The notes beneath the pieces are model-generated. The model ran no database searches and had not been told where the DNA came from. It saw only the letters and a list, made by a program, of their open reading frames with translations. A program made the position numbers and the translations under genes. This document shows, in pieces, positions 2,294-18,707 of a stretch of DNA of 54,563 nt. The first letter of the stretch is position 1; the number at the start of each line of letters is the position of its first letter. This DNA is from Phormidium willei BDU 130791 (GTDB lineage Bacteria > Cyanobacteriota > Cyanobacteriia > Cyanobacteriales > Geitlerinemataceae): NCBI GenBank assembly GCA_001637315.1, contig LSZA01000014.1:1-54563 (forward strand), given 5' to 3'.

Positions 2294-2890
2294 CTAAGCT
2301 GCGATTAACTCTCGATTTTCCTTGTGCATCACCAGCCAATGTTTGGAAGCATCCAGAAATAGGCGATTTTGGCGTTTGAACTCTCCTAAAATGCGGGTTA
2401 CGGTGACGCGATTGACACCGATCGCATTGGCTAAGTCTTGATGAGTCAGCCTGGCTTTAAGGCGAACGCCATCGGCTGTCGGTTGTCCCATTTCCCGAAT
2501 CAACAGTCGTAGTAAGTTTTCCAGGCGATCGCTGGCCCGTTTCTGGGCGGTAATACTCAACAAATGTTCTAATTGATAGAGTCGCTTGGCTTTCTGCTGA
2601 ATCAACGTGTAGCCAAGTTGAGGACTACGTTCAATCTCATCGAGGGGATACCAGGTCATCATTACCCGAGATAGGGCTTTCATTTGATGGTTATGACGAG
2701 TGGTTAATCCTTCTCCTAACCACATCGAGGGACCCACCCAGCCTAACACTCGTTCTTCGCCCATCACCATGTAGGTGTTGAGTTGGACCCAACCTTGGCA
2801 AACTTGCCAAATTCCAGTGCTTGATTGCGGTAAGAGATCGCCGCGATCGTAAATACGACTGGTTCGATGACGCATGACGGTCGGTTGCAT
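2294..2890 (-). CDS. Crp/Fnr family transcriptional regulator
   Basis: A 198-residue regulator with an N-terminal cyclic-nucleotide-binding-like beta-roll and a C-terminal winged helix. The recognition region LTHQDLANAIGVNRVTVTRIL (from about residue 145) is the Crp/Fnr helix-turn-helix and resembles that of NtcA. The beta-roll is short and lacks an obvious cAMP-binding motif, so the effector is unknown. An upstream in-frame ATG exists at 2950, but GGAGG lies just before the ATG at 2890, which decides the start. It is convergent with holB (26 bases between stops) and divergent from the hemerythrin gene, so it could control that gene. Confidence 0.85.
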   Translation of the reverse strand: MQPTVMRHRTSRIYDRGDLLPQSSTGIWQVCQGWVQLNTYMVMGEERVLGWVGPSMWLGEGLTTRHNHQMKALSRVMMTWYPLDEIERSPQLGYTLIQQKAKRLYQLEHLLSITAQKRASDRLENLLRLLIREMGQPTADGVRLKARLTHQDLANAIGVNRVTVTRILGEFKRQNRLFLDASKHWLVMHKENRELIAA

Positions 2891-3217
2891 AATTTCCTCC
2901 CCGTGGGGTGTGTGGCAGCGAGGACTCGGAGACCGATAGGATTTCTCCAACTAGCCCTAAAGCTTAGAATAGGGAGTCAACGTTAAATTTCCGTAAAGAC
3001 AAGGCAAACTTTAGGAATAGCTTAGCCCTGTTGATCTCGACTGTTGTAACACCTTTTGACTGAGTCTGGGTAATCTTTGACAGATTTAAGCTGAAAAATG
3101 CTTTAAAATCAAGACCATAGCACTGAGAAATGAGGAGATAGACTCTCCAAGACTCTCTTGGGCTACCTAGTTCAGTGATTGACCCGAAACGTTTACTGTT
3201 CATTGGGACTTAAAGCG
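2891..3217. other. Intergenic region between Crp/Fnr regulator and hemerythrin
   Basis: About 330 bases separate two divergent genes. The stretch is more AT-rich than its neighbours and should hold both promoters. I saw no perfect NtcA-type GTA-N8-TAC box, no tRNA and no strong terminator. Reading frames that cover it (for instance an unlikely 79-residue frame on the minus strand) have no ribosome binding site. Confidence 0.5.
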
Positions 3218-3619
3218 ATGCGAACGATTCCTTGGGATGAGTCTTTGCGAATTGGAATTGATACGATTGACAAGCAACATCAACAATTGATTGAACATCT
3301 CAATCTGTTAATGGTGGCGTTGGAAGAAAATAAAGGAAAGTCGGAAATCGAAAAAATCATCAAGTTTTTGGATCGATATATTGCACTTCATTTTGGTTTT
3401 GAAGAAAACTGCATGAATGCCTATCAATGCCCAATCGCCTGCAAGAACAAAGAGGCTCATGCCTATTTTCGGCAAACCTTTGAAGAGATAAAAACCCAAT
3501 TTCGTCAAGAAGGTGCAAGTCTTTCGTTGGTTCTAAAAGTCAACCAAAAACTTCTAGATTGGTTTATCAACCATATCCGCAAAATCGATATGCAGCTCAA
3601 ACCCTATACACAGAGTTAA
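3218..3619 (+). CDS. Bacteriohemerythrin (hemerythrin-like di-iron protein)
   Basis: A 133-residue four-helix O2-binding protein. The family signature is complete: the opening IPWDESLRIGIDTIDKQHQQL supplies the first His, LHFGFEENCM the HxxxE-type pair, EAHAYFRQTF the next His, and FINHIRKID the HxxxxD pair near the C-terminus. These His, Glu and Asp residues bind the diferric centre. The frame is open from 3179, but MRTIPWDESL at 3218 matches the family N-terminus, so I chose that ATG. Single-domain bacterial hemerythrins store or sense O2, or protect O2-sensitive enzymes. It stands alone, divergent from the Crp/Fnr gene. Confidence 0.92.
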   Translation: MRTIPWDESLRIGIDTIDKQHQQLIEHLNLLMVALEENKGKSEIEKIIKFLDRYIALHFGFEENCMNAYQCPIACKNKEAHAYFRQTFEEIKTQFRQEGASLSLVLKVNQKLLDWFINHIRKIDMQLKPYTQS

Positions 3620-3665
3620 CAGCAAGGTTAACCGCAAGGGTCGTGACTGATTGTGTTAAGTGTTG

Positions 3666-4331
3666 ATGGCAAATGACGACAGTTTCAATTACGATAACTT
3701 CATAACTTCTATGATGCGTGTATTGGCGATCGCCCTCACCCTACCCCTAAGCCTCTCCCTGGCCACTGGTCTCCTGACCAGTTCTGCCCAGGCTGAGATC
3801 CGATCGTGTCCTACCGCTGCCCGCAATACGCCCTGGGGCGAGTGTTACCGGGACTTACGCCAGGGACTAGCCAACTCAGCGGTCTCACTCTACCGTATGG
3901 GAGTCTTGGCCCAATCGTCTCAACCGGCAACGGATGCAGATCGCGTGATGATTCCCTTTGAAACCGAAATCCAAGGCAACTACAGTGGTGTGCATGAGTC
4001 TTTTGAGAAGCACATGACGGATGAGTCGGACTGGCAGCGTTTTTGGCAACAACTTCAGGGGAACACCTCGCCAGCGGCCGACATTCCCGAGATTGACTTT
4101 GAGCAGTATAGTCTGATTGCCGTGGGATTGGGCGATCGCCCCGATGGGTCCTATGGTGTCCAAATAGACCGGGTACGGCAACAAGACGAGGGTCTAGTTG
4201 TCCACTATTTAGAAACTCGTAGTTGTGGCATGGCGACCATGGCGATTACTCAGCCGTATCAAATCATACGCATTGAACGCACCCGTCTTCCGGTGAGTTT
4301 CCAGCATCATCAGGCACCTCGGGACTGTTAA
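3666..4331 (+). CDS. Exported protein with PrcB-like C-terminal domain
   Basis: About 221 residues. A hydrophobic segment (ALTLPLSLSLATGLLTSSAQA) ends in an AQA signal-peptidase site, so the protein should be exported. The C-terminal third (YSLIAVGLGDRPDGSYGVQI, then VHYLETRSC and PYQIIRIERT) resembles the PrcB_C domain (named after the dentilisin complex protein PrcB): a beta-sandwich with a G-x-x-P-x-G-x-Y core. Three starts are possible: GTG 3660, ATG 3666 and ATG 3711; the last gives the most standard signal peptide. Two Cys near the N-terminus of the mature part and one near the end could form a disulphide. Role unknown; the S8 protease at 40.4-42.5 kb is not adjacent. Confidence 0.7.
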   Translation: MANDDSFNYDNFITSMMRVLAIALTLPLSLSLATGLLTSSAQAEIRSCPTAARNTPWGECYRDLRQGLANSAVSLYRMGVLAQSSQPATDADRVMIPFETEIQGNYSGVHESFEKHMTDESDWQRFWQQLQGNTSPAADIPEIDFEQYSLIAVGLGDRPDGSYGVQIDRVRQQDEGLVVHYLETRSCGMATMAITQPYQIIRIERTRLPVSFQHHQAPRDC

Positions 4332-4389
4332 CCCTTGCGAGAACCTGGAATAATGGGATCGATGCCAACACTGCAATGCCATTCTTCCT

Positions 4390-5709
4390 ATGAGTAGCCC
4401 AAAAATCATTGTTCTCGACGACGATCCCACCGGTTCCCAGACCGTTCACAGTTGTCTCTTGCTCACCCAATGGGATGTCGAGACCTTAAAATTGGGACTC
4501 GTGGATGAGGCGCCGATTTTCTTTGTCCTCACCAATACTCGCGCCTTGGCCCCTGAAGCGGCCCGTCAAGTGACCTGTGAAGTTTGTCAAAATCTCAAGA
4601 CGGCGATCGCCCAAGTGGGGATTGACGATTTCCTGGTGGTTAGTCGCTCCGACTCCACCCTACGGGGTCATTATCCCATCGAAACCGATGCGATCGCCCA
4701 AGAACTCGGCTCCTTTGACGCGCATTTCCTCACCCCCGCCTTCTTTGAGGGAGGACGCATCACCCGCGACAGCATCCATTATCTCCATGTAGACGGACAA
4801 CCGGTTCCCGTCCATGAAACCGAATTTGCCCGCGATTCCGTTTTTGGCTATCACCACAGCTATCTCCCCGACTATGTGGCCGAGAAGACCCAGGGAACCA
4901 TTGCCCCTGAGGCGGTGGAACGGTTTACTCTGGATGAGGTGCGATCGGGCTGTTTCGAGCGGTTAATGGCCTTAGACAACAACACCTGTGGCGTAGTGGA
5001 TGCCGAAACCCAAACCGATTTAGACCAATTCGCCGCCGACATCCTCAAAGCCGCCAGTCAAGGCAAACGCTTTCTCTTCCGCAGTGCCGCCAGTCTCCTC
5101 ACCTCCCTAGCCAATCTCGGCCCCCAACCCATCGCCGCCGAAGACATGGCCCAATATGTGCGGGGTGGCAAACCGGGGGCTGTCTTAGTCGGGTCCCATG
5201 TCAAGAAAACGACCCAACAACTTCAGCATTTATTACAAGAAACGGGAGTGGCTGGGGTGGAAGTGGATGTTCGCCATCTCCTGGATGAGTCTCCCCAACA
5301 GCGAGAGGCGTTGTTAACAGGGGTTTTAGAGAAAGTGCAAGAGAGTTGGTCCAGTGGCCAAACTCCCGTTATCTATACCAGTCGTGAAGAATTGCAATTT
5401 CCCGACCCCGATACCCGTCTCAAGTTCGGCGTTGCGGTGTCTCAATTACTCATGGATGTGGTGCGGGGATTACCGCCGGAATTGGGCTTCCTGATTAGTA
5501 AAGGGGGCATTACCTCCAATGATGTCTTAAGTGAAGGGTTGGCCCTGCGAACGGCGAAACTCTTGGGGCAAATTCTGGCAGGCTGTTCCGTCGTACGGAC
5601 TCCCGAGACTCATCCTCAGTTTCCCAATTTACCGGTGGTTCTCTTCCCCGGCAATGTGGGAGATGAGCGGGGGTTAGCGACCGTCTATCGTCGCTTTGCT
5701 GGGGATTGA
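4390..5709 (+). CDS. Four-carbon acid sugar kinase family protein (DUF1537)
   Basis: A 439-residue ATP-dependent kinase of the DUF1537 (OtnK/DtnK/YgbK) family, which phosphorylates threonate- or erythronate-like sugar acids. The N-terminal DDDPTGSQTVHS (residues 9-20) is the substrate-binding signature of the family. Near the C-terminus, ISKGGITSNDV and LFPGNVGDERG form the nucleotide-binding motifs. Length matches the family. The partners usually encoded with it in heterotrophs (dehydrogenase PdxA2, aldolase) are absent here, so the pathway is unclear. Its 3' end overlaps the alginate-lyase-family gene on the other strand by 25 bases. Confidence 0.88.
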   Translation: MSSPKIIVLDDDPTGSQTVHSCLLLTQWDVETLKLGLVDEAPIFFVLTNTRALAPEAARQVTCEVCQNLKTAIAQVGIDDFLVVSRSDSTLRGHYPIETDAIAQELGSFDAHFLTPAFFEGGRITRDSIHYLHVDGQPVPVHETEFARDSVFGYHHSYLPDYVAEKTQGTIAPEAVERFTLDEVRSGCFERLMALDNNTCGVVDAETQTDLDQFAADILKAASQGKRFLFRSAASLLTSLANLGPQPIAAEDMAQYVRGGKPGAVLVGSHVKKTTQQLQHLLQETGVAGVEVDVRHLLDESPQQREALLTGVLEKVQESWSSGQTPVIYTSREELQFPDPDTRLKFGVAVSQLLMDVVRGLPPELGFLISKGGITSNDVLSEGLALRTAKLLGQILAGCSVVRTPETHPQFPNLPVVLFPGNVGDERGLATVYRRFAGD

Positions 5710-7142
5710 GAGGATTCGCCATAAATAAAGGTGAAGACACTGGCGGGACTATGGAGAGGATGGGCCGTCTCTTGGGGGATTAACTTCGGCGCGTTGGCGG
5801 CGATGATGTCTTCATAAAACGGGGCATCTTCGGGGTAGTAGTCTTGGGCCAGGAGAAACAGATAGAGGGTATGGTATTTGGGGTTTTCCCCAAAATAGGG
5901 TTCATAGGCGATGGGACAATCGCCGTCGTAGGGGTCGGGGGAGGGTTCGAGGTCTTCGATATCTCGGCAGTCCTCCCGTCCCCAGGGATAGTCTAGGTAA
6001 TACTGGCCGTAGAAGCGCAGGGCATTGCGAATCGATTGGTTTTCAACGTCTATCAATCGCTGGTCTGGGTATTGCAGGCCGTTGAGTTCCGCCATATGGG
6101 CCGTGAGGATGAGGCCTTCGAGGTGGAAGACGCTGTAGGCAAATCCCACTCCTTGGGTCACGTCTTCGTCCCACCAGCGATGGCGGTCGTAGATGTCGTT
6201 TTGGGCGGGGGGATGGGGGAGACTGCGGTGGCGATCGTAGATTTCCCCGGTTCGCGCTTGAATGGGCAAATGAGAGAAGCCCCGGTTCCGGCGAAAGAGA
6301 TTATCGGGGTTATCTTCCTCATAAATGGCATCCCGGACTAAGTTGGCATAGTTCCAGGGACTGTCGTCTAAGACATAGTCCAGTAACTCATCATCTTCAC
6401 CATAGAGGGCTGCAATCAACATCCCTTGTAAATGTCGGGAGAGGTGGTTGTTGGCCCCTTCGCGAGAGAGGTGACGCAGCCAATAGCGATGACTGGTTTG
6501 GATTTGTTGACCCAGGGCCAGGAACCAATCTCGAACCTGTTGCTGTTCTCTCGGCGACATCTGGGGGGCGACGAGTTGAAAGGCTTGGGCGTAGTAGTGA
6601 AAGAGGCGGCCGATATCGAGTCCGGCCCCGATGAGATCGTCACGGTGTCCTTGTCCGACTTGGGTTCCGCCGTCAGCTTCGGCCCAAGCTAGGAGGGTAT
6701 CGATGGTGGTTTGGCAATGGTCGGCGGCCGCTTCGATGACGCAAACTAAGGCGGTATAGAGGCTGGGGGTGAGTCCGGTGGTGGCGGCTTGGCGGTAGTC
6801 GTCGCGTCGGGTTCCGGTGTAGACGGGTGGGGGGGAGTTTTGGACTCGTTGTTGGAAGCGATCGGCTTTGCGTTTAATGTCCCGATAGGCGGCGTGGGTG
6901 AGGGGATAGTGGTCTGGGGATTGTTGGAGTCGGTGTTGGGCTTGTTGTAAAGCCTTATTACTAAACAACACTGGGCTAAACTCTGTGGAAGTTATGCCCT
7001 GGGTCTTTGTCCTTAGTTGCCAAGTTAATGGGAGAAATGCTGATTCAAAAGTTTCATACCCCGGCTCTAATTGAATCTGGTGCAAGCTAAGTGAACTTAC
7101 AAGAATAAGCAAAATCAAACCAATCAAAGTTTTGGGAGTCAT
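5685..7142 (-). CDS. Alginate lyase family protein (membrane-anchored or exported)
   Basis: A 485-residue protein. The N-terminal hydrophobic stretch TLIGLILLILVSSLSL is a signal peptide or anchor, so it acts outside the cytoplasmic membrane. The body is helical and resembles the (alpha/alpha) toroid of alginate-lyase-like (PL5-related) proteins: LFSNKALQQAQHRLQ, then NNHLSRHLQGMLIAALYGED (the NNH core), then an Arg/His/Tyr-rich segment (GFSHLPIQARTGEIYDRH), then VGFAYSVFHLEGLILTAHMA. Expected role is beta-elimination of a uronic-acid polymer or periplasmic binding of it. It lies 3 bases downstream of the sulfotransferase-like gene, so the two form an operon. Base composition changes inside the gene: the first 60 codons or so are AT-rich, the rest GC-rich. 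Substrate not determinable. Confidence 0.75.
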   Translation of the reverse strand: MTPKTLIGLILLILVSSLSLHQIQLEPGYETFESAFLPLTWQLRTKTQGITSTEFSPVLFSNKALQQAQHRLQQSPDHYPLTHAAYRDIKRKADRFQQRVQNSPPPVYTGTRRDDYRQAATTGLTPSLYTALVCVIEAAADHCQTTIDTLLAWAEADGGTQVGQGHRDDLIGAGLDIGRLFHYYAQAFQLVAPQMSPREQQQVRDWFLALGQQIQTSHRYWLRHLSREGANNHLSRHLQGMLIAALYGEDDELLDYVLDDSPWNYANLVRDAIYEEDNPDNLFRRNRGFSHLPIQARTGEIYDRHRSLPHPPAQNDIYDRHRWWDEDVTQGVGFAYSVFHLEGLILTAHMAELNGLQYPDQRLIDVENQSIRNALRFYGQYYLDYPWGREDCRDIEDLEPSPDPYDGDCPIAYEPYFGENPKYHTLYLFLLAQDYYPEDAPFYEDIIAANAPKLIPQETAHPLHSPASVFTFIYGESSQSPAKRR

Positions 7143-7145
7143 GGT

Positions 7146-8411
7146 TTAGAAAGAATTAGAATTCACGACAATTCGGCATACTAAATTCTGCCATTCAGGC
7201 AAGTTCGTTAAATCTTCAGAATTAAACGACTCACCATGACATATGGACAACTGAAGGAAGCGATTCAACCAATCTATAATGAATTCCGTTTTGGAAAAAT
7301 CGGAATAACGCTGTGATTTTTGCAGCCGTGACGCCATTTCAAAGAAATCTCCTTGACAATAAGCTGCCCAAGCTTCCCAGACAAGGCATTGGTAGCAAGC
7401 ATCAGGATCTTGAGCAACAGATTGTTGAAACTTAAAGCGCCGAATTATCCAATCTTTTTCTTGATTATTACGTTGTATATTTTGCAGATTTTCTTGTGTC
7501 TTATGAAGTTGACAAACATAAAGTCTTAGTTTGTTTTTTAAGGTTTTTATTAGCTGATTTGCTTCTTGCATTTCCATATTTAGCTTTTTAACATGTAACC
7601 AATCTTGAATTGTCCATTGTAGAGATGAATGGTCAGCAATTTTTGATTTTTTATCCGTTTCATACTGATCATGAGTAGTCCACGCCTGTTGGTTTAAAGT
7701 TTCGTAAAGTGCGATCGCCTCAGGATACCTGTGAGTGATAAGATGTCGCAGTCTGTACTCCTCAGAGATTTCATTTTTGAACTGATTTATCAGTTCTGTT
7801 GAGATTAACGACTCATTAATTGGCGATGTAAATCGTGTCTTAATTTCTTGAAGATAGGCTTCGGGCTCATTATAAACACTATCAAACTTAGCCAATAGAC
7901 AATCTTGAGGATACATAGCACAAAAACTAGAAATCACTTGATTATACTGACTCCATAATTCAATAAATTTATTTAAATTTTCATCAAAAACAGCTTCAAA
8001 CTCTTCATAATATCGATTCAAGATAGACCAAGGAGAATCGTAGATCAAAATAAATTTTGCATTAGGAATTTGATATTTCCAGAATTCTAAAAATAAACTT
8101 GTATAAGGATCAGACCAACCCCATAAATATAGATGATTGCGACAAGAAATTAATGTTTGAGCTTGACTTTTGTGATAGTCGTCTAACAAAATTGTTTCAT
8201 CAGAAGCCGATGAGGCGATAATTTCTTCCTGAAAATTGCTGAAGCTACCGAGAGCCTGGTCTTGATCCATCGTTACTCCACTCCCCTTAAGTAGGGAGGA
8301 AGCCAAAGATAGTCCTGAGTAATGCATTCCCGTAGCCACGAAAATAGAACGATTAGAAAGGTTGAACGTCTTGGAAGACTTAGTCATCGTTAATCCATCG
8401 ATAAGATCCAT
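7146..8411 (-). CDS. Sulfotransferase-like P-loop protein with shared C-terminal module
   Basis: A 421-residue protein. Residues about 24-40 (FVATGMHYSGLSLASSLL) match the GMHRSGTS-type PAPS-binding loop of sulfotransferases. NAKFILIYDSPWSIL is the place of the second PAPS motif, but the usual Arg is replaced by Asp. The middle (about 270-330) is a charged coiled coil. The C-terminal 75-80 residues (LVWEAWAAYCQGDF to EWQNL) closely parallel the C-terminus of the GT2 enzyme at 14714-15685. ATG at 8411 is used; ATG at 8387 is also possible. It is AT-rich and sits in the island, 3 bases before the alginate-lyase-family gene and divergent from the BNR_4 gene. It could sulfate a glycan, but the Asp replacement leaves activity in doubt. 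Confidence 0.7.
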   Translation of the reverse strand: MDLIDGLTMTKSSKTFNLSNRSIFVATGMHYSGLSLASSLLKGSGVTMDQDQALGSFSNFQEEIIASSASDETILLDDYHKSQAQTLISCRNHLYLWGWSDPYTSLFLEFWKYQIPNAKFILIYDSPWSILNRYYEEFEAVFDENLNKFIELWSQYNQVISSFCAMYPQDCLLAKFDSVYNEPEAYLQEIKTRFTSPINESLISTELINQFKNEISEEYRLRHLITHRYPEAIALYETLNQQAWTTHDQYETDKKSKIADHSSLQWTIQDWLHVKKLNMEMQEANQLIKTLKNKLRLYVCQLHKTQENLQNIQRNNQEKDWIIRRFKFQQSVAQDPDACYQCLVWEAWAAYCQGDFFEMASRLQKSQRYSDFSKTEFIIDWLNRFLQLSICHGESFNSEDLTNLPEWQNLVCRIVVNSNSF

Positions 8412-8560
8412 TGTCTATTCTTTATCCTGGGTATCTGAGCCTTTAACCGGATAATTCAGAATAAATCTTAAATTTATCCGGAATTCGGTCTAGCAAGACT
8501 GAGGATATAGACTGAGCTATTTGTTTCCTATAGCAAAGTAGTTGATCTAATGTCATAAAA
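8412..8560. promoter_or_regulatory. Divergent promoter region with inverted repeat
   Basis: This 149-base AT-rich spacer lies between two divergently read glycan genes. It contains an exact inverted repeat, CCGGATAA at 8447-8454 and TTATCCGG at 8474-8481, with a 19-base spacer. The symmetry and central place suggest an operator or a leader hairpin shared by both genes; that role is inferred. Confidence 0.4.
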
Positions 8561-10081
8561 ATGAAATCAGAAAAAAACAATCATAAAAAAACAACTTTTT
8601 ATACGTTATCACTAATAACTAGATGCAAAAACCAAGAAAATCTGCTTGAGAGAGCTTGGTTTTATTTAGATAGACAAAATATCTTAAGTCATCAAAAGCC
8701 TGTCTCATTATCAAACATCAATATTTTTTTCGACAAAGACAAAAACCACGTACAAGTAAATTTTCTTAATACAATTAACAACAAGCAAAGTAAAAAGTCA
8801 TGCATTCCTGCTTTAAATTGTATTCAACTGGGTCAAGCTTGGTCTGGAAATACTATTAATACTGTCATTTTTCGTCATCACGGTATTCTCACCGCTCAAA
8901 ATTATCAGTTTACAGCTTACTATGATCACAATAAGCAATTACAACTAATCAAAAGAGATTTAACAAATCAGTCTATAACTCGTTATGTAATTAACAAAAC
9001 TTATAGCATTGAAGATGCCCATAACTCTATTAGTCTGGGAATTGATGCTCAAGGCTATCTCCATTTATGCTACGACCACCATGTTCATTCATTACACTAT
9101 CGAAAATCTTCTCAGCCATTTTCAATTAATTCTTGGACGGAAACATTATCAATGACAGGAGAAAATGAAAAACAGGTAACCTATCCAACATTTATTATCG
9201 AGCCTAGCTCAGGGAGCTTACTATTCATGCATCGAGATGGTAACCCTTATAGAGGACGGGCATTTTTAAAATACTATGATGTCTCTCAAAACACTTGGAT
9301 TGACTATCCACACGCTATTTTATCCGGTTACGATCATAAACCTTGGACTAGCAATCCTTACTGGAATCATCCAGTTTTTGACCTCGAGGGTAAACTTCAT
9401 TTATCTTATGTCTGGCGTAGTCGTTCTCTTGGCAAGCACCAGAAAATAAATAATATTGGTATTGACTATACTTACTCTCCAAATTTAGGGAATGACTGGT
9501 TAACGGTTCGAGGAATCCCCTTACAGATACCAATCACTCAAGTTAATAGTGAAACAATCTGGGCAATTCCTCGCGGAGTAAATCTCATCAATCAAACCAG
9601 CATGGCAGTAGACAGCAAAGGTCATCCTCACATCGTTTTTTATGCTAATGATAATTATCAAATTCCACAATATCAGCATCTATGGTTTAATGGTATAGAA
9701 TGGTGTCATCAAATTATCTCTCGTCGAAACAAAAAATTTGATTTGCTAGGAGGAGGAACTCTACAAATTCCCATGAGTCGTCCAGAGATCGTTATTGATG
9801 AGAAAGATTATATATATGTAATTTATAGGGCTGATATAACAAAACATCAAATGGCCGTTTTGACCTTGTTCCCAGATGATTATTCTTTAGAAAAAGGTGT
9901 AGAGCGAAGACTATCTGAGGAACCTTTAGGTTTTTCAGAACCTATTATTGATCGTTTACGGTGGAATCGTGATAGAATCTTATCTATGCTAATTGGTTAT
10001 AATAATCAACCAAGTCATGATAAAAATATACAAGAAACACAGCATCCTATTTATATAATGGACTGGGATATTAGATTGTAA
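8561..10081 (+). CDS. BNR_4 family propeller protein, ulvan-lyase-like
   Basis: A 506-residue protein. From about residue 88 it follows the BNR repeat-containing family (BNR_4), seven-bladed propellers that include ulvan lyases PL24/PL25. Marker segments are TVIFRHHGILTAQNYQFTAYYD (split at residues 101-122), EDAHNSISLGIDAQGYLHL (151-169) and YDHHVHSLHY (171-180); the His, Tyr and Asn in them are the likely catalytic or binding residues. MHRDGNPYRGRAFL and SMAVDSKGHPHIVFY form later blades. There is no signal peptide, unlike secreted ulvan lyases. The first 85 residues are extra; LSLITRCKNQENLLERA looks faintly like a GT2 start. AT-rich codon use. Substrate unknown; a sulfated or uronic-acid glycan made by neighbouring enzymes is my inference. 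Confidence 0.72.
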   Translation: MKSEKNNHKKTTFYTLSLITRCKNQENLLERAWFYLDRQNILSHQKPVSLSNINIFFDKDKNHVQVNFLNTINNKQSKKSCIPALNCIQLGQAWSGNTINTVIFRHHGILTAQNYQFTAYYDHNKQLQLIKRDLTNQSITRYVINKTYSIEDAHNSISLGIDAQGYLHLCYDHHVHSLHYRKSSQPFSINSWTETLSMTGENEKQVTYPTFIIEPSSGSLLFMHRDGNPYRGRAFLKYYDVSQNTWIDYPHAILSGYDHKPWTSNPYWNHPVFDLEGKLHLSYVWRSRSLGKHQKINNIGIDYTYSPNLGNDWLTVRGIPLQIPITQVNSETIWAIPRGVNLINQTSMAVDSKGHPHIVFYANDNYQIPQYQHLWFNGIEWCHQIISRRNKKFDLLGGGTLQIPMSRPEIVIDEKDYIYVIYRADITKHQMAVLTLFPDDYSLEKGVERRLSEEPLGFSEPIIDRLRWNRDRILSMLIGYNNQPSHDKNIQETQHPIYIMDWDIRL

Positions 10082-10179
10082 TCATGAAACCATCTCTAGC
10101 TTTTAAAAGTCATTCTTGATATAGCCATAGTCATGTATGACAAGATTTACAAAGTATAACAACTATGTTTCTGCGATGA

Positions 10180-10223
10180 TATAAAAATAAGATCAACGTA
10201 GTTACGTTGATCTTATTTTTATA
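10180..10223. terminator. Bidirectional intrinsic terminator
   Basis: A perfect 21-base inverted repeat (10180-10200 with 10203-10223) and a 2-base loop between two convergent genes. The outer parts of the arms are A-rich and T-rich, so either RNA strand forms a GC-containing stem (GATCAACGTA core) followed by a U-rich 3' side. It can end transcription of both the BNR_4 gene and the sulfotransferase gene. Confidence 0.85.
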
Positions 10224-10835
10224 CTATACTTTCAATTTAGTATTTGAAACATTTTTGTGAGGGAATGATTCAGCGGGTATTGGTAACCCCAAAAATGGGG
10301 CTAATCGCTCAAATCCATCACCTGCACAGATATTCATGATTAGTAAATCTTGAGGTCGATCAGCAAAGTACTCAGTAACAGCTCGGTAATGATCGCGTTT
10401 TTCCTTTCGCCATTTAGGCTCATCGATTTTCACAAATGGACTGTCATAGTCACCCCGTTCTTTGGCTGCCAAGTTTTGATTAATATGCTTGACTCGACTT
10501 TTAATCCAAGTATCTTCATCCCGATCAGTATAAATGAACTTGCTATTTGGATATTGTTTATCCAGAATGTGAAAACTTTTAATGATTGGGTAAATGTCAC
10601 TGTAAGCGTCATAGTTGCTCCAACGACCCAACATAGGCTTGTTCTTTTTCAGGGACTGATTCATTTCCTGTCGAATAGTCTTAGATACAATCATCATTTC
10701 ACCGGTAGAATCTAAATCAGAGGGAGCCCAGTGCAGCGATCGCAAGCCAAGCATCAAAAATCCATAATGTAAACTCGTAGTACCAGTCTTATTCAGTCCG
10801 ACGCAGAAAATTTTGTTGAAAGATTTGTTCGTCAT
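10224..10835 (-). CDS. Sulfotransferase family protein
   Basis: A 203-residue P-loop sulfotransferase. FCVGLNKTGTTSLHYGF (about residues 8-24) is a well-preserved PAPS 5'-phosphosulfate loop (NKTGTTS). PNSKFIYTDRDEDTWIKS (about 95-112) is the strand-loop binding the 3'-phosphate. The C-terminal CAGDGFERLAPFLGLPIP is typical of the family that includes Sulfotransfer_4. It would transfer sulfate from PAPS to a sugar or other hydroxyl. The frame runs from 10874, but MTNKSFNKIF at 10835 is the sensible start. It is the last gene of the minus-strand run that begins at the GT2 gene, and it ends at the bidirectional terminator. Confidence 0.85.
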   Translation of the reverse strand: MTNKSFNKIFCVGLNKTGTTSLHYGFLMLGLRSLHWAPSDLDSTGEMMIVSKTIRQEMNQSLKKNKPMLGRWSNYDAYSDIYPIIKSFHILDKQYPNSKFIYTDRDEDTWIKSRVKHINQNLAAKERGDYDSPFVKIDEPKWRKEKRDHYRAVTEYFADRPQDLLIMNICAGDGFERLAPFLGLPIPAESFPHKNVSNTKLKV

Positions 10836-10909
10836 GAGTTTAGATTTAATGTCAAGTATTTGACCAGGCAACAAAGTAAAGCAGGTTGAATAACTTCAGA
10901 ATTCACATA

Positions 10910-13900
10910 TCAGAAGGGTTCGTGAGGTTTTTGCGTAACAAAAGTGATAAGTCGTTGTACTTCTGGATGTGGATTATCAAGTTTCCATAACTTTACGTCG
11001 TAACCAATATCTTTTAGTGAATCCACAATATCAGCGCCAAAATCAGTATAAACAATACAGGAATTTCCTCGCCCATCTCCATGATATCTAGGCTCCAAAA
11101 GATGGATATCCTCAGGCCCTGAGACATCAACTCGATAAATTGTCTGTTTAGGTAAGGGAAACTGCACCGGGATAGAAAAAACATGATAGCCACCAGGCTT
11201 CAGAACTCTATAGACTTCTTTAAAAGCTATCCAAGGATGTCTGATATGCTCAAAAATATCAGAGGTAATGATTAGATCAAATTCATTATCTGGATGAGTA
11301 AGATTTTCAAGATCTTGACATTGAATGTTATTGTGATACTCACCTGAAGGAACATCATCCCAGTAAAAGGATGTTGTATAATGCTTGAGATTTTCTTGGA
11401 ATACTGTTCTGAAAGAACCTGTAATACCTGGCTCATAGACGTTCAATTCTTGAAAATTCTCTTCCTGACAGAGTTCAGCTAGAGAAGATGACCGGTTCAA
11501 GCTATAAAGTTTTACAAGCGCTTCAGCTTGTCCCTGATATCTCAGAGATGCCTTGCAATTATTGCAGCGGTATCCTTCTCGTAAGGAGCGATTTGCTTTT
11601 TCAAATTTCTGAGAATGTCCACAAACTGCGCAAGTGCCATTATAGCTATATTTAGACAAAGACTTTGTTTCTATTTTTTTGTAACTCTGAGGCATCGCTG
11701 ATAACTTCGCTAAGTGAGGACGTGGGGCTGAACTGATACTTTTAGGATGATCCTGAAGGAACTCATCAATGTGCCTTGAAAAACGAACTTCCCAGCTGTT
11801 CTCTCGAACATAGTTTTTCGAAGTCGCTAAGTCTGGCTTGGGTTGTGTTAAAGTTTTTTGGATTTGAGTTAAAAACTCTTCATGGCTGTCAGCTATCCTA
11901 ATCATCTTACAGTTTCGATCAATGTTACTAACTTTTGTTGAAACTACAGGAATATCCAGAGCAAGATAAACAAACACTTTTAAAGGATTCATGTTGTTGG
12001 TTAGCTCTGTTTTTAAATGGGGCACAATCCCCACATCAAATCGAGATACCCAAGCTCCAACTTCACGGTAAGGAATTACACCGGGCATCCGAATATTTTG
12101 GTATTTTTTTAGATCTAATACTTTAGGATTTGCATGAGTTGAACCAATTAGAACAATTTGACAGTCCTGAAAAGTGGTAGCTAGTTTTTGAATCAACTCA
12201 ATATCGATTTTTGATTCAAGATTGCCAATATATCCAATTGTTTTTCCTGGATAATCACAAAATTCTGTGAAAGAATGTGAATTTTTGGGCTCAATAATTG
12301 GAATTTGCGTATCACAGCCATTAGGAACTAAGCGAATATCACTACAGAACTCTTGCATCGATAACAAGACTTGCTGACAATTTGTGAAGGTCATATCAGA
12401 TAAATCAAGAATATCCTGGTAGTTTTTGGCTAAACGAGCTTTTTCAGCTTCAGAGGTGTTGGGCCAACATCGATGATCATCTACCACATCTACAACAACT
12501 TTGCTTGGATTAAAATGATGTATAATTTCGGGCGCAGAATAATTTTTAGGGTAAACCCAAAAAATAGACTGGCTTGGTTCGATGTGTTCACGCAGAAATA
12601 CTTCCTCCAAGTAAGGAATATACCCCTCAGTTAGTTTGGGGCGATCTACTTGCTTTTCGTTGGTCTGATAAACACCAGGAGGGTAAACAAATAGAGTATA
12701 AGAAATTTTCGAATTATCCTGTTTTCCTAGAAGTTTTTCATAAGTTCTGATATAAATCCAGCGATCTTGATTCCCTTCACGACTGGAGACTTGCTTCTGA
12801 ATTAAGTCAAATTCAGACATGGGTGCATCAACAACCAGCACTTTTCGGACATCGGAACGCGATGCTAAATACTCCACAATCATATCATGCCGTCTTCCGT
12901 ATAGCCCTGTGTCATTTTGTTTCCAAAAAATAACAATATCAACTCCGGCATTGGGTTTTGTGACTTCAGTGTTTAGGGGCCTGAAGTGATTTATTAAGGC
13001 ACTAATTCTGGAAACAACTTTATTGTTATTGATAGCTTTATCTGACTGTGGTGTCGAGATAACCCGTTCTAAGACTTGTCTAATTGCCTTGGCAGATGAT
13101 TGATAACTATAGTGAGACAAGAATCTATCTCTGAGGGTGTTTTTATCTTGTTTTTTATAAAAATTACGGCAGCCTACTTGCTCTAAGGTTTGGGGCAAAC
13201 TTTCAAAATCAATGAGTTGAGCTACACCATGGTCAACTAAGTCCATAAGAGGCTCAGTCCGACTAACCAGAAGTGGAACTCCCATTGCGATCGCATCAAT
13301 GGCCTTGGCAGGAAGTTGATATTTAGAAATTGCATGATCTTGATTTTGTGGCAAACACACAACATTTGCCATAGACAAAATTTTAGGAATGTCATTAAAT
13401 GGCTGATTCGGCATGTAGATAATACGGTTTGGAGCCAAACTATCTAATTTATTCGTGACACTACGATCCGTTGTGCTACCGACAATTAAGAGTCGAAAAT
13501 CCGTATCTTTGATAGCATTGACTGCTTTCGCTAAGGTATCTAAGCCTTTATGAAGACGGGGAGTGCCAAAAAATAAAACAATTTTAAAATGTTTGGGAAT
13601 ACCATAGTGTTCTCGAAACGCTGTTCCATCATGTAGATTAGGATCAAAATGTGTTTCATTTCTGACATGAGGAATAATAACTCCACCAAATTTCTCTTGT
13701 AAAGCCCGGTTTGAAACTAAAACCTCGTCTGTAAATGGCAATAAACTTTCGGTTAAGCGTGTCCAAACTTCTTCATAGGGTTCTGATGTCTCTAGCTTGC
13801 TTTGCTCTGCAATAAACTCCAGCTCAGACAAACTTAATTGAGTTTTGTTTTTAAAGAATGATAGTTCATGATCATCTACGTCAACAAGAACAGGACACTT

Positions 13901-14596
13901 GAGTTTCTGTTTCAGTTTCAACCCTAAATAAACGGATGGAAAACGGGATTTGCAGGCAATCACCACATCAGGCTTGATTCTATCTGCAATCTGTTCTAGG
14001 GTTAAGTTAAAATCCGGAAAATCAGAGCCAGGAATACTAATAACAGGTAGTGTTCCATCAGAGACAGGTTCCCAAATTTTATTCCCATAACGTGGAAACT
14101 GAAATCCCATAATGACAGTATGTCGTGCAACTCTCTGCACAACCTCAGCTAACATATAGGCTCGTCCCAAAGGATTATGACCAACATCCCAACTTATAAC
14201 TAATACAGTAATAGGAAGTTTTCGTTGAGAGCGGCTAATGGTTTGAGTTTTAAGCTGATGAAGTACTCTGTGATTGGTAGATTTAAGTCCAACCTTAGCA
14301 AATTTCGGTAAAATCTTTGGTTCTGTTAGCGCCGTAGGCTTAAGGGATGGTTTCTGTAACTGTCGATAGACTCGATATAAATTCTGAAGTACCTCTTTTT
14401 GACTACCTTTGATCTCATTAAGAATACACTTAAATTCATGATCATAGCCGAGTTCTAGTAAAGCATGACCGAGATTAAAATAAGCGGGGTAAAAGCCTGG
14501 GTTTAGGGCTATAACCTCTCGGTAAGCTGCGATCGCGGCTTCAAGTTTATCCTGCTGAAATAGTCGATTAGCTTCTCGAAAATGTTGTTTAGACAT
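10910..14596 (-). CDS. TPR-glycosyltransferase-glycosyltransferase-methyltransferase fusion protein
   Basis: A 1228-residue four-part protein. (1) TPR-like helices at about 1-70 (FREANRLFQQDKLEAAIAAY). (2) A GT-B, GT4-type glycosyltransferase at about 127-500, with FGTPRLHKGLDTLAKAV and AIAMGVPLLVSRTEPL. (3) A second GT-B unit at about 549-945, with RLVPNGCD, IGYIGNLESKIDIELIQ and NNMNPLKVFVYLA. (4) A zinc ribbon (CAVCGH, then CNNC) near 985-1013 and a class I SAM-dependent methyltransferase at about 1035-1228 (FDLIITSDIFEHIRHPW, VLKPGGYHVFSIP). It should build and methylate a glycan on the cytoplasmic face. ATG 14596 is preferred to 14614. It lies between the GT2 and sulfotransferase genes, and is AT-rich throughout. 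Confidence 0.85.
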   Translation of the reverse strand: MSKQHFREANRLFQQDKLEAAIAAYREVIALNPGFYPAYFNLGHALLELGYDHEFKCILNEIKGSQKEVLQNLYRVYRQLQKPSLKPTALTEPKILPKFAKVGLKSTNHRVLHQLKTQTISRSQRKLPITVLVISWDVGHNPLGRAYMLAEVVQRVARHTVIMGFQFPRYGNKIWEPVSDGTLPVISIPGSDFPDFNLTLEQIADRIKPDVVIACKSRFPSVYLGLKLKQKLKCPVLVDVDDHELSFFKNKTQLSLSELEFIAEQSKLETSEPYEEVWTRLTESLLPFTDEVLVSNRALQEKFGGVIIPHVRNETHFDPNLHDGTAFREHYGIPKHFKIVLFFGTPRLHKGLDTLAKAVNAIKDTDFRLLIVGSTTDRSVTNKLDSLAPNRIIYMPNQPFNDIPKILSMANVVCLPQNQDHAISKYQLPAKAIDAIAMGVPLLVSRTEPLMDLVDHGVAQLIDFESLPQTLEQVGCRNFYKKQDKNTLRDRFLSHYSYQSSAKAIRQVLERVISTPQSDKAINNNKVVSRISALINHFRPLNTEVTKPNAGVDIVIFWKQNDTGLYGRRHDMIVEYLASRSDVRKVLVVDAPMSEFDLIQKQVSSREGNQDRWIYIRTYEKLLGKQDNSKISYTLFVYPPGVYQTNEKQVDRPKLTEGYIPYLEEVFLREHIEPSQSIFWVYPKNYSAPEIIHHFNPSKVVVDVVDDHRCWPNTSEAEKARLAKNYQDILDLSDMTFTNCQQVLLSMQEFCSDIRLVPNGCDTQIPIIEPKNSHSFTEFCDYPGKTIGYIGNLESKIDIELIQKLATTFQDCQIVLIGSTHANPKVLDLKKYQNIRMPGVIPYREVGAWVSRFDVGIVPHLKTELTNNMNPLKVFVYLALDIPVVSTKVSNIDRNCKMIRIADSHEEFLTQIQKTLTQPKPDLATSKNYVRENSWEVRFSRHIDEFLQDHPKSISSAPRPHLAKLSAMPQSYKKIETKSLSKYSYNGTCAVCGHSQKFEKANRSLREGYRCNNCKASLRYQGQAEALVKLYSLNRSSSLAELCQEENFQELNVYEPGITGSFRTVFQENLKHYTTSFYWDDVPSGEYHNNIQCQDLENLTHPDNEFDLIITSDIFEHIRHPWIAFKEVYRVLKPGGYHVFSIPVQFPLPKQTIYRVDVSGPEDIHLLEPRYHGDGRGNSCIVYTDFGADIVDSLKDIGYDVKLWKLDNPHPEVQRLITFVTQKPHEPF

Positions 14597-14713
14597 GATT
14601 ACACCGTGCATCACATAAATTTAAATATTTTTTGCAAAAGCAGCCAGAAATATTGCAACTAAAAGTACTGCTTTTTAATGTATAAAAAGCTTATTTTTTT
14701 GCCCATACAAAAT

Positions 14714-15685
14714 TTAATATAACTGTTGTGAAACCTGTTGCCATTCCCAAGAGGTGCTTAACTGTTTACTATCAAAAACTCGCCCATACTCCGCCTCATA
14801 CCGCTCAAACCAACGCAGCCAATCCAAAATGACCTCCGTCCGAGATTGATGACCACACGCCAAAGACTTCCTCAAATAATCCCTCATTAGAGAAAACTCA
14901 CCCGTCGAGTACAACCGCCAAGCACTCCAAACCAGATTGTTATAGCGAGCCTGAGACTCAAGCCGCCGTATCTCTGGTGGGAGATGAGGATGAGCAAACA
15001 TCTCATCTAAAATTTGCTCACACTCGCGCACCTGCACTCGCGTTTCCCGCGAAGCATTGCCCGGATGTTGGCGATAGGAAACCGTTGGCCGAGAAACCCA
15101 GGCCGCTTGGCATCCTCTTAGTATTAACTGCAAAACCAACGCCACATCCGGAGTTTTTTCCAAGGTTTTATCAAACCCCCCCACCTCCTCAAAACCCGAT
15201 CGCCGAAACAGCATCGCCCCCAAAAACACCGGCTTCCACAACAGCCACGCCGCCAAATCCAACTCAGGAATCCCCTCCCTCGGATTCACCGTCGACAACC
15301 GCGCTCCCGCCGCATCCACCACAAACCAACCACTATGAACCATCCCCAGATGGGGCGACTCCTGCAACGCCGCCACCTGAACCTCGAACTTCTCCGGCTC
15401 AAACCAATCATCCTGATCCAAAAAAGCAATAAACTCCCCTCGCGCCACCTCCAGGCCCCGATTCCGCGCCACCGCCACCCCCTGATTCTCCTGGCGAATA
15501 TAGCGCAGCCGCGAGCCATAGGGCGCAATCAGCGGCTCGATCGCCTCCGTCGAGCCATCATCCACCACAATCAACTCCCAATCCCTATAAGTTTGCACCA
15601 AAACACTGGCGATCGCCTCCCCCAAAAAGCGCCCACCATTGTAAACCGGAATAATCACACTCACCCGAGGATTCACCACAGACAT
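14714..15685 (-). CDS. Glycosyltransferase family 2 protein with shared C-terminal module
   Basis: A 323-residue GT-A glycosyltransferase. SVIIPVYNGGRFLGEAI opens the fold; WELIVVDDGS and EFIAFLDQDDWF carry the DD and DxD-type residues that bind nucleotide sugar and metal. The last 80 residues (LVWSAWRLYSTGEF to WEWQQV) match the C-terminus of the sulfotransferase-like protein at 7146-8411. The frame reaches 15718 with a TTG, but ATG at 15685 has GAGG eight bases before it, so I chose it. It is GC-rich, unlike the next gene downstream, so the AT-rich island starts right after its stop. Donor and acceptor sugars unknown. Confidence 0.88.
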   Translation of the reverse strand: MSVVNPRVSVIIPVYNGGRFLGEAIASVLVQTYRDWELIVVDDGSTEAIEPLIAPYGSRLRYIRQENQGVAVARNRGLEVARGEFIAFLDQDDWFEPEKFEVQVAALQESPHLGMVHSGWFVVDAAGARLSTVNPREGIPELDLAAWLLWKPVFLGAMLFRRSGFEEVGGFDKTLEKTPDVALVLQLILRGCQAAWVSRPTVSYRQHPGNASRETRVQVRECEQILDEMFAHPHLPPEIRRLESQARYNNLVWSAWRLYSTGEFSLMRDYLRKSLACGHQSRTEVILDWLRWFERYEAEYGRVFDSKQLSTSWEWQQVSQQLY

Positions 15686-15747
15686 TGATTTAACCTCATC
15701 AACATCCGCTCTCTTCAATCTCTCCCGATCCTTCTCAGGATTCCCCC

Positions 15748-16509
15748 CTACACCGTATCCGGATCAACCCCCAACGCGCGCAACTGTTCCGCCAACCGCT
15801 GAGCCCACTTCTTCGCTCGTTCCGTCCGTTGATTCGCCTGCAACAACTGCGACTCAATCCGTTCCGCCCGCTTCTCATACTCCTCGCGATCCAACAACTC
15901 CTGCTGAGCCAACTCATAGCCCGTCGGTAAAATATTGCCCTGCTGATCACACCAACGCAACCAGAGGCCATCCTTATCCTCAAACTCCCCTTGCCACAGC
16001 ATCAACCCCAACCCTACCTGATCCAACCAAATTGGCTTATCCAGCTCATTAAACTTGGCAATCTCAAAATAGCACTTACCCCGCAACTCAAACGCCCGCA
16101 ACCGGGGACCCCCCAGCACCCGTTCAGGATCAAACAGCACATAGTAACTCACCCGTAACCGCTCATACACACTCAGCTTCGCCCCCAACTCATCCCCCGT
16201 CGCCGTCGAGACAACTTCCATCACCAAATCCGGAGACTTGCCAAACTCCCACAGAGAATAAGGATGATGACGATGCGTCCACCAATCATCACCAATATCC
16301 AAACTCAACATCAAATCCGGGGCCACCAGAGGCTGTCCCTGAGTATGGAGAATACCGATATTGCTTTCAATCAAGAACGGTTGTCCATGCAGAGACGTAT
16401 ACAGCGAATCCGTCAACAGACGCTTCTGTTTCGCCGTCACAAACGTATCGATCGCAATCTCCGTACCGGCGATCGCCTCATGGGGAGTAAAATTCGGGGA
16501 CTTATCCAT
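15748..16509 (-). CDS. Uma2 family (DUF820) nuclease-fold protein
   Basis: A 253-residue protein with the PD-(D/E)XK-like fold common in cyanobacteria. VAPDLMLSLDI, SPDLVMEVVS and KLSVYERLRVSYYVLFDP supply the Asp, Glu and Lys/Tyr pattern of the family. A C-terminal coiled coil (about 205-250) rich in Glu, Gln and Arg follows, as is usual in this family. Cyanobacteria often carry tens of such genes; their role is unknown and nuclease activity is inferred from the fold only. It is 36 bases downstream of the GH25 gene and 62 bases upstream of the GT2 start. Confidence 0.88.
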   Translation of the reverse strand: MDKSPNFTPHEAIAGTEIAIDTFVTAKQKRLLTDSLYTSLHGQPFLIESNIGILHTQGQPLVAPDLMLSLDIGDDWWTHRHHPYSLWEFGKSPDLVMEVVSTATGDELGAKLSVYERLRVSYYVLFDPERVLGGPRLRAFELRGKCYFEIAKFNELDKPIWLDQVGLGLMLWQGEFEDKDGLWLRWCDQQGNILPTGYELAQQELLDREEYEKRAERIESQLLQANQRTERAKKWAQRLAEQLRALGVDPDTV

Positions 16510-17858: not shown

Positions 17859-18707
17859 TCAGCGATTATCCCCAAAGGTTTTGCCATCAGGCATAATGGT
17901 TTGCAACAACTCCGCATCCCGGAAATTGGTCTTATAAATCTTAGCACTCATTAGAATCGCATCATTGAGCGTGGCCCCCGTCAAATTCGACCAACTTAAC
18001 TTCGTGCGATATAAACTCGCCCCCGTCAAATTGGCACCCCGCAGCGTTGCCCAACTTAAGTTCGCGGCTCTTAACTGAGCTTTCGTTAGGTTCGCCCCAG
18101 CCAAATTGGCGCCACTCAATTTAGCAAAACTCAAATCAACCGCCGTCATATTTGCCTGACTTAAATTAGCGCCATTGAGGATACTTTTCATCAAATTTGC
18201 ATTTTCCAAATCCGCTTCCGTCAAGACAGCGATCGTTAAATTCGCCCCCTCCAAAATTGTACCCCGCATCGAGGCACGACAAAGATTTGAGCGGCTTAAA
18301 TTCACCTCCCGTAACGTCGCTTCATCTAAACTCGCCTGACTCAGATCGGCCTCATTTAAAACCGCTTCCGTTAAATCTGCCCCTTGCAATGATACCCCCA
18401 ATAACTTAGCTCCTCGTAAATTGGCCTCGCTCATCTGGGCCTGAGATAAATCGGCCTTGAGCAACTTGCTCGAAATCAAATTAGCATCCTGCAAATTGGC
18501 GCCACGGAGTATAGCGCCCTGCAACTGACATTCCCGGAGATTGACTCCACGCAAGTTGGTCTCCTGCAAATTAACCGAAGTTAAATTGGATTGCCGCAGA
18601 TTGGCCCCCGAGAGGTCTTGCCCAGATAAATTGGCGCGACTGAGGTCTATTTCCCGAAAATCCCGTTCTCCGTCCGCATATCGCTGCAAGAGTTCATCGG
18701 CTCTCAT
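17859..18707 (-). CDS. Pentapeptide repeat protein
   Basis: A 282-residue protein. From about residue 20 to 275 it is almost entirely A(N/D)LXX pentapeptides (GANLRQSNLTSVNLQ and so on), giving a right-handed quadrilateral beta-helix of about twelve coils. A short N-terminal cap (MRADELLQRYADGERDFREI) resembles that of many cyanobacterial pentapeptide proteins. No signal peptide or enzyme domain is present. Function unknown; some family members mimic DNA, most in cyanobacteria are uncharacterised. It is divergent from ilvD. Confidence 0.93.
   Translation of the reverse strand: MRADELLQRYADGERDFREIDLSRANLSGQDLSGANLRQSNLTSVNLQETNLRGVNLRECQLQGAILRGANLQDANLISSKLLKADLSQAQMSEANLRGAKLLGVSLQGADLTEAVLNEADLSQASLDEATLREVNLSRSNLCRASMRGTILEGANLTIAVLTEADLENANLMKSILNGANLSQANMTAVDLSFAKLSGANLAGANLTKAQLRAANLSWATLRGANLTGASLYRTKLSWSNLTGATLNDAILMSAKIYKTNFRDAELLQTIMPDGKTFGDNR

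What the first reader, a model, noticed from the sequence alone, without database searches (positions are those of the whole stretch)
5685..15685. Candidate sulfated-glycan synthesis and trimming locus in a cyanobacterium
Two sulfotransferase-fold proteins, three glycosyltransferase modules, a methyltransferase and two polysaccharide-lyase-like proteins (alginate-lyase family and BNR_4/ulvan-lyase-like) stand within 10 kb. Known cyanobacterial sulfated-polysaccharide clusters carry sulfotransferases and glycosyltransferases. I do not know of one with BNR_4 and alginate-lyase-like enzymes built in. Export genes are absent, so an accessory modification cassette is likely.
Basis: partly seen in the sequence, partly recalled or inferred. 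Interest (0 to 1): 0.72.

Follow-up and report, generated by a model that had tools for sequence, protein, structure and literature searches.

The report
Capsule-assembly lyase in swapped cassette
In this cyanobacterium a stretch of low-GC DNA, likely acquired from another lineage, fills a locus whose predicted sugar-coat genes differ from species to species, and one of its proteins is predicted to be an enzyme that would cut polysaccharide chains inside the cell while they are still being built.

Summary
The gene list is right; the grouping is not. DNA homology to sister species stops inside the alginate-lyase gene (6941-6975) and inside the GT2 gene (14765-14784), enclosing a 36.7% GC block (rest of window 52.7%). 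All 7 genus genomes keep the GT2 flank; 6 keep the lyase flank and one has a remnant with stops. The block differs in all six resolved genomes but always encodes glycosyltransferases and methyltransferases. BNR_4 occurs in 2 of 7, both at this locus, and in 2 of 386 sampled cyanobacteria. It has the PL42/GH145 propeller fold; ten PL42 active-site residues are conserved in at least 146 of 148 sequences, whereas the GH145 catalytic histidine is not. Most relatives show no obvious export signal, and 23 of 26 relatives' loci hold polysaccharide-assembly genes (KpsMTE-type export, Rml, multi-GT or coiled-coil proteins). Best reading: a cassette from an ABC-exporter-type glycan pathway whose BNR_4 protein likely cuts nascent chains by beta-elimination. 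The 421-aa "sulfotransferase" has lost PAPS-site residues and looks like a coiled-coil ruler protein. Catalysis, substrate and export route are untested.

The parts
6942..14783 (.). variable low-GC block (cassette); each limit uncertain by about 35 and 20 bases
   Evidence: blastn homology to sister genomes ends at 6941-6975 (five genomes) and 14765-14784 (five genomes); the only shared DNA inside is 69% over 1.2 kb within BNR_4 with G005; GC 0.367 vs 0.527
7146..8411 (-). 421-aa sulfotransferase-fold protein with degenerate PAPS sites, heptad region (residues about 268-332) and the shared C-terminal module
   Evidence: no Pfam hit; relatives hit Sulfotransfer_3; profile hits tyrosine sulfotransferase E 0.003; alignment shows GMHYSGLS and YDSPW where relatives keep GMHRSGTS and YRSPW; heptad z 4.8
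7164..7424 (-). C-terminal module (about 90 aa) shared with the GT2 protein
8561..10081 (+). BNR_4 protein, seven-bladed propeller of the PL42/GH145 kind, predicted cytoplasmic uronate lyase
10224..10874 (-). 216-aa sulfotransferase, Sulfotransfer_4 family, loop GLNKTGTT
   Evidence: 95.6 bits; sequence
10910..14614 (-). 1234-aa TPR + two GT group-1 regions + methyltransferase
   Evidence: 56% identical over 824 aa to the protein next to BNR_4 in a Hydrogenophaga MAG
5685..7142 (-). alginate-lyase-family protein, conserved flank; its first ~55-65 codons lie in the variable block
14714..15718 (-). GT2 protein, conserved flank
   Evidence: 116.3 bits; in 7 of 7 genus genomes, cut by a contig edge in one
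14717..14980 (-). C-terminal module of the GT2 protein
4390..5709 (+). four-carbon acid sugar kinase-like frame gene
   Evidence: SBD_N and NBD_C; 92-96% aa identity in three sister genomes
15748..16509 (-). Uma2-family frame gene
   Evidence: PF05685 47.2 bits; 97-100% aa identity in five sister genomes

Best explanation
Window 6942-14783 is a low-GC cassette, likely acquired from another lineage, that fills the variable middle of a genus-conserved locus predicted to assemble a surface glycan, and its BNR_4 protein is predicted to be a cytoplasmic uronate lyase that would trim or end the growing polysaccharide by beta-elimination before export. Shown: the fixed frame and swapped middle; the PL42/GH145 fold model; near-invariance of the PL42 active-site residues; repeated placement of relatives beside KpsMTE-type export, Rml, multi-GT and coiled-coil genes; a C-terminal module shared by the GT2 and the sulfotransferase-fold protein that in this genus occurs only at this locus. 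Inferred: the multi-GT proteins polymerise the chain; the coiled-coil sulfotransferase-fold protein acts as a ruler or scaffold in the manner of WbdD; the small sulfotransferase adds sulfate; the host's Wzm/Wzt transporter on another contig exports the product; BNR_4 acts on a uronic-acid linkage of the nascent chain. The last step is the least certain.
Against: GH145 enzymes keep the same anterior residues yet showed no lyase activity (PMC8377490, section 13), so conservation does not prove lyase action. FoRham1 Y26 is F and S170 is not kept. No substrate is known. About 17 of 120 listed relatives have a hydrophobic N-terminus in a crude screen, so part of the family may be secreted. Loci L040, L046 and L054 showed none of the assembly genes sought. 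The window has no KpsMTE or Rml genes next to BNR_4, and no tail-type protein was found in the cyanobacterial loci. The nearby sugar dehydrogenase in Burkholderia relatives is UDP-ManNAc dehydrogenase, so glucuronate is not implied there. The window's small sulfotransferase has no counterpart in the 29 loci (0 of 29). HIP1 sites are fewer in the block (0.52 against 1.71 per kb) but, against base composition, no less enriched than outside (4 seen, 0.03 expected; 80 seen, 0.87 expected), which points to a cyanobacterial rather than a proteobacterial immediate donor.
Confidence: 0.5

Rival explanations
1. BNR_4 is a uronate C5-epimerase-like enzyme that inverts uronic acids in the nascent chain, using the first half of the lyase reaction without bond cleavage.
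Against: All residues for full PL42 elimination are kept; no epimerase with this propeller fold appeared among the listed matches (best 50 rows only).
Confidence: 0.15
2. BNR_4 is a non-catalytic glycan-binding or scaffold protein of the assembly complex.
Against: Base, neutraliser and triad residues (H154, H174, Y208, R225) are identical in 148 of 148 sequences and D152 in 146, more than binding alone would need.
Confidence: 0.17
3. The locus glycosylates proteins in the cytoplasm (TPR-guided glycosyltransferases) and no polysaccharide is made.
For: TPR domains on GT, methyltransferase and G005 BNR_4 proteins; the TPR head of G005 BNR_4 is 57% identical over 101 aa to that of a methyltransferase in G001; no flippase, polymerase or ABC gene between the flanks.
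Against: Named relatives of BNR_4 and of the 1234-aa protein sit in KpsMTE/Rml loci.
Confidence: 0.12
4. One reading: one co-inherited accessory cassette in which two lyases trim a sulfated extracellular glycan.
For: All six protein types are present within 10 kb; both lyase-like proteins have uronate-lyase folds.
Against: Flank genes are conserved without BNR_4; breakpoints lie inside the flank genes; BNR_4 has no signal sequence; one sulfotransferase is degenerate.
Confidence: 0.06

Closest known systems
PL42 L-rhamnose-alpha-1,4-D-glucuronate lyase FoRham1 (PDB 7ESK-7ESN)
   Different: Fungal and used on gum arabic; the window protein has no signal sequence, sits among synthesis genes, and has F for Y26 and no S170
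GH145 BT3686 and relatives (PDB 5MUK, 5MUM, 5MVH, 4IRT)
   Different: Score under the equivalog cut-off of 700; catalytic H48 is A in the window and variable in the family
Coiled-coil ruler/terminator proteins of ABC-transporter-dependent glycans (WbdD; Klebsiella O4 and O7 terminators; PMC11231755, passages)
   Same: Catalytic head, coiled-coil-like middle and separate C-terminal region; heads swapped between relatives (L030/L031); neighbouring multi-GT proteins
   Different: Head is sulfotransferase-fold and degenerate in the window; no kinase or Kdo-transferase head; no ABC transporter in the locus itself
Synechan (xss) cluster of Synechocystis (PMC8205485, passages)
   Same: Cyanobacterial glycan locus with two sulfotransferase-type genes and several glycosyltransferases
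   Different: xss has Wzx, Wzy and PCP genes and no lyase term in the paper text (0 occurrences); this locus has none of those export genes and has a BNR_4 protein
AlgL, periplasmic alginate lyase of alginate biosynthesis (recalled; PDB 4OZV)
   Different: Periplasmic and unrelated in fold to BNR_4

Membership tests
PL42 | BNR_4 propeller fold like FoRham1 | tested here: met
PL42 | His-His-Asp triad, Tyr150 and neutralising Arg166 | tested here: met
   D152, H154, H174, Y208, R225
PL42 | Release of rhamnose from Rha-alpha-1,4-GlcA by beta-elimination | not testable with these tools
   needs enzyme assay
GH145 alpha-L-rhamnosidase | Catalytic His48 on the posterior face | tested here: not met
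   A112 in the window; H in 35 of 148 family members
GH145 alpha-L-rhamnosidase | NCBIfam equivalog cut-off | tested here: not met
   307.8 against 700 bits
PAPS sulfotransferase (421-aa protein) | 5' and 3' phosphosulfate-binding residues (motifs recalled) | tested here: not met
   GMHYSGLS and YDSPW against GMHRSGTS and YRSPW in L025 and L031
PAPS sulfotransferase (216-aa protein) | Sulfotransferase domain over curated cut-off | tested here: met
   Sulfotransfer_4 95.6 against 22.8 bits; activity untested
WbdD-type coiled-coil terminator system | Catalytic head plus coiled coil plus recruitment region | tested here: inconclusive
   heptad z 4.8 in the window protein, crude method; C-terminal module shared with GT2; recruitment untested
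WbdD-type coiled-coil terminator system | ABC transporter encoded with it | tested here: not met
   none between the window flanks; Wzm/Wzt on another contig; KpsMTE-like genes in 10 of 29 relatives' loci
PL5/PL17/PL38-type alginate lyase (flank protein) | Alpha toroid uronate-lyase fold | tested here: met
PL5/PL17/PL38-type alginate lyase (flank protein) | Full set of catalytic residues and alginate cleavage | not tested
   Asn231 and His233 invariant in 14 of 14 rows; not mapped residue by residue onto a structure
Wzx/Wzy sulfated-EPS cluster (synechan type) | Wzx, Wzy and PCP genes in the cluster | tested here: not met
   no such family among the island ORFs or flanks scanned

The most novel reading that the evidence does not exclude
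BNR_4 is a new kind of polysaccharide chain terminator: inside the cell it removes the last sugar of a growing uronate-containing chain by beta-elimination and leaves a 4-deoxy-4,5-unsaturated uronate that has no O4 to extend, so that growth stops and the chain is passed to an ABC-type exporter. The conserved anterior site of GH145/PL42 proteins would then have had this assembly role, which offers an answer to what that site is for.
Probability: 0.15. Interest if true: 0.87.

Novelty: new variant of a known kind. Interest (0 to 1): 0.6.

Why it matters
Authors of the PL42 work left open why GH145 proteins keep an intact lyase-type anterior site although the tested Bacteroides enzymes showed no lyase activity (PMC8377490, section 13). 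A large family that keeps that site, has lost the GH145 histidine, mostly lacks an obvious export signal, and sits in polysaccharide-assembly loci of many phyla makes the question directly testable. If BNR_4 cuts nascent chains, bacteria would have a cytoplasmic lyase step in capsule building; five full-text searches found no report of one (open-licence papers only). The locus also shows how a genus can change its predicted sugar coat by swapping the middle of a fixed frame, with breakpoints inside genes, and suggests a coiled-coil scaffold on which sulfate and methyl heads are exchanged.

Tried and rejected
GH145 rhamnosidase as the function of BNR_4: rejected because H48 is not kept. Glucuronate from a neighbouring UDP-glucose dehydrogenase in Burkholderia-type loci: rejected, the protein is UDP-ManNAc dehydrogenase (L057 699.7 bits over cut-off 459); tblastn hits of 25-28% to that query in other loci are distant and were not counted as the same enzyme. 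HIP1 scarcity as proof of foreign origin: dropped, since against base composition the block is as HIP1-rich as the rest; GC, breakpoints and relatives carry that claim instead. PDB sequence search with the alginate-lyase protein or its profile gave nothing; the fold came from the AF2 model only. Aggregate Pfam scan of neighbours: 82 proteins of 23 loci within two genes; I had left out L033, L039, L041, L058, L059, L060, proteins over 1900 aa and three more for size (85 to 82); sulfotransferase families were not among the 25 families shown. Five sulfotransferase-like neighbours scanned singly had no Pfam sulfotransferase hit. The tail search covered only five genes either side; L034 was borderline (E 0.63) and is not in the 14. 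I did not test alternative start codons, expression or the catalytic residues of the alginate-lyase protein. The giant genes of G004 and G005 were not scanned with Pfam; their domains are read from homology to scanned relatives. The tally '23 of 26' is mine, after dropping L033 (near copy of L032) and the distant L058 and L060; L040 and L046 are near copies of each other. The window BNR_4 lacks a signal sequence by eye; no dedicated predictor was at hand.
Full report
Observation. The 421-aa protein at 7146-8411 has no significant Pfam hit; its relatives in G004 and G009 do hit Sulfotransfer_3, and a profile of four relatives matches tyrosine sulfotransferases weakly (E 0.003).

Two compositions. 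By gene, GC is 0.54 for the alginate-lyase gene and 0.53 for GT2, and 0.34-0.39 for the four genes between them. The window is a whole 54.6-kb contig (C14) of a 4.6-Mb draft genome in 171 contigs. GCGATCGC (HIP1) occurs 84 times in it, which together with relatives named Lyngbya and Cyanobacteriota fits a cyanobacterium; the genus is unnamed in these tools. HIP1 is sparser in the block (0.52 against 1.71 per kb), but against base composition it is at least as enriched there (4 seen, 0.03 expected; 80 seen, 0.87 expected outside). So the block is likely to have come from, or lived in, a low-GC cyanobacterium.

Conserved frame, swapped middle. GT2 is found in 7 of 7 genus genomes (cut by a contig edge in G006) and the alginate-lyase gene in 7 of 7, but split over contigs in G006 and a short remnant with three stops in G003. 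The DNA between them is about 7.6 kb here, 9.2 in G001, 9.8 in G002, 9.9 in G003 (to the remnant), 22.2 in G004 and 11.7 in G005 (coordinates). The contents differ: G001 a TPR-methyltransferase and a giant TPR-LamG-GT protein; G002 a TPR-LamG-GT2-GT4 protein, a sulfotransferase, a TPR-methyltransferase and a 421-aa-type protein; G003 a giant protein, two methyltransferases and two proteins without a family; G004 GT2, GT group 1, two sulfotransferases, a cytidylyltransferase, dehydrogenases, a methyltransferase, a transposase and a giant protein; G005 a TPR-BNR_4 protein, a methyltransferase and a giant protein. The giant genes of G004 and G005 were read by homology only.

Breakpoints inside genes. 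Window DNA matches five sister genomes up to 6941-6975, that is inside the alginate-lyase gene near codons 56-68, and five from 14765-14784 on, inside the 3' end of GT2. Within the block the only DNA match is 69% over 1.2 kb in BNR_4 with G005. The giant genes of G004 and G005 are 97% identical over their first 3688 bases and then share nothing in that comparison, and their GC falls from about 0.5 to 0.35 in the same region. In the window the start of the alginate-lyase gene has been replaced; G005 and G001 copies have lipobox-like starts (LAIAGC, LAISGC; sequences) that the window copy lacks.

BNR_4 distribution. It is in 2 of 59 near relatives and 2 of 386 sampled cyanobacteria, in both cases the window genome and G005, both at this locus. 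G005's protein is 83% identical to one from Limnospira sp. PMC 1295.21 and 55% to the window's; the window's closest are two metagenome proteins (83% and 78%). In a tree of 148 sequences these seven form one clade (0.985) with the window group (1.0) inside it; one of the seven, P0004, comes from a MAG labelled Ectothiorhodospiraceae. Flank proteins of the two genomes are 89% (GT2), 94% (alginate lyase) and 96% (kinase) identical. The simplest reading is two separate gains, or one gain and a replacement, in the same hotspot. Contig lengths in the protein search suggest that the 421-aa protein and BNR_4 also travel together in two metagenome contigs (16,382 and 8,210 bases), but those contigs were not seen.

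Where its relatives live. One scan of 84,980 species' genomes gave 29 loci in Bacteroidota, Proteobacteria, Desulfobacterota, Chlorobi, Acidobacteria-labelled, Nitrospirota-type and Planctomycetota records. In Oceanimonas smirnovii BNR_4 follows RmlA, RmlC, RmlD, a coiled-coil-type protein and RmlB and precedes a GT2-GT4 protein. In Paraburkholderia fynbosensis it follows KpsM-, KpsT- and KpsE-like genes, a nucleotide-sugar dehydrogenase and a 662-aa coiled-coil-type protein (KpsM and KpsE models match under their equivalog cut-offs). A Hydrogenophaga MAG adds a polysaccharide export protein with SLBB domains, a sulfotransferase-like coiled-coil protein, and a GT protein 56% identical over 824 residues to the window's 1234-aa protein. 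Over all 29 loci tblastn finds GT2-GT4 in 14, relatives of the 1234-aa protein in 9, KpsM, KpsT and KpsE together in 10, RmlC or RmlD in 8 and the 421-aa type in 6 (query loci included). Of 26 loci left after dropping one near copy and two distant members, 23 show at least one such gene (my tally); L040, L046 and L054 show none.

Coiled-coil partners. A 45-residue C-terminal tail, built from five of these proteins, ends a neighbour of BNR_4 in 14 of 29 loci (five are the seeds), 0-7 residues from the C-terminus and directly upstream of BNR_4 in 11; L034 is borderline. It was not found in the cyanobacterial loci. The 421-aa protein instead ends in a 90-residue module that the flank GT2 also carries. 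In seven genus genomes this module gives nine matches, all at this locus (six are rows of the model); outside the genus it is found more widely, for example six times in G014. In family members G009 and G008 the same coiled-coil and module (64% identity over 253 residues) carry a sulfotransferase head in one and a methyltransferase head in the other. A heptad score exceeds shuffles in these proteins (z 4.8 window, 2.6 L023, 3.5 L025, 6.5 L031, 6.2 L030) and not in two control stretches (0.4, 1.7). This recalls the terminator-plus-ruler proteins of ABC-dependent glycans, whose C-terminal part recruits the polymerase (PMC11231755, passages).

Degenerate sulfotransferase. Where the G004 and G009 relatives read GMHRSGTS and YRSPW, the window protein reads GMHYSGLS and YDSPW and G002 reads GMRQSGLS and YRSPW. 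The proteobacterial neighbours show GHPSSG-like loops and VYD. That these motifs bind PAPS is recalled. The 216-aa protein keeps GLNKTGTT, so sulfation, if any, likely rests with it.

Host exporter. The genome holds one Wzt_C protein. It lies after an ABC-2 membrane gene and before a methyltransferase and a 1336-aa sulfotransferase-triple-GT2 protein, one RmlC gene and one nucleotide-sugar dehydrogenase over cut-off lie on other contigs. A cap-recognising ABC exporter is therefore available elsewhere, but a link to this locus is inference.

Known and new. Sulfotransferase-bearing cyanobacterial glycan clusters are known (PMC8205485, passages), as are variable polysaccharide loci (recalled). 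A BNR_4 protein as a recurrent member of assembly loci was not found in five searches; the eleven papers naming BNR_4-type terms were seen as a listing only. I therefore call it a new variant of a known kind of locus, with a chain-ending lyase as the boldest open reading.

Noticed in passing
G000:C88 (L077) 2365-9737: Wzm, Wzt with Wzt_C, a methyltransferase and a 1336-aa sulfotransferase plus triple GT2 protein stand side by side: a likely sulfate- or methyl-capped ABC-exported glycan.
   Followed up: partly
G000:C46 22724-29421: Four Sulfotransfer_3 matches within 7 kb; 12 such matches in the whole genome.
   Followed up: no
L005 1952-9043, L075, L022, L024: Giant TPR-LamG-GT genes keep their first ~3.7 kb (97% in G004/G005) and swap the rest, with a GC step inside one reading frame.
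   Followed up: partly
L030 7116-8696 and L031 9137-10699: Same coiled coil and C-terminal module with a methyltransferase head in one genome and a sulfotransferase head in the other.
   Followed up: partly
window 15748-16509: Uma2-family protein beside the hotspot is 97-100% identical in five sister genomes, more than the GT2 (82-90%) next to it.
   Followed up: partly
window 3179-3619: Hemerythrin-domain ORF at 38% GC between 50-54% GC genes.
   Followed up: no
window 17859-18707: Pentapeptide protein close to HetL (238.1 bits, cut-off 260).
   Followed up: no
L024 3990-4176 and G003:C1:799948-800112: Alginate-lyase remnant with stop codons: the flank lyase is dispensable in one species.
   Followed up: partly
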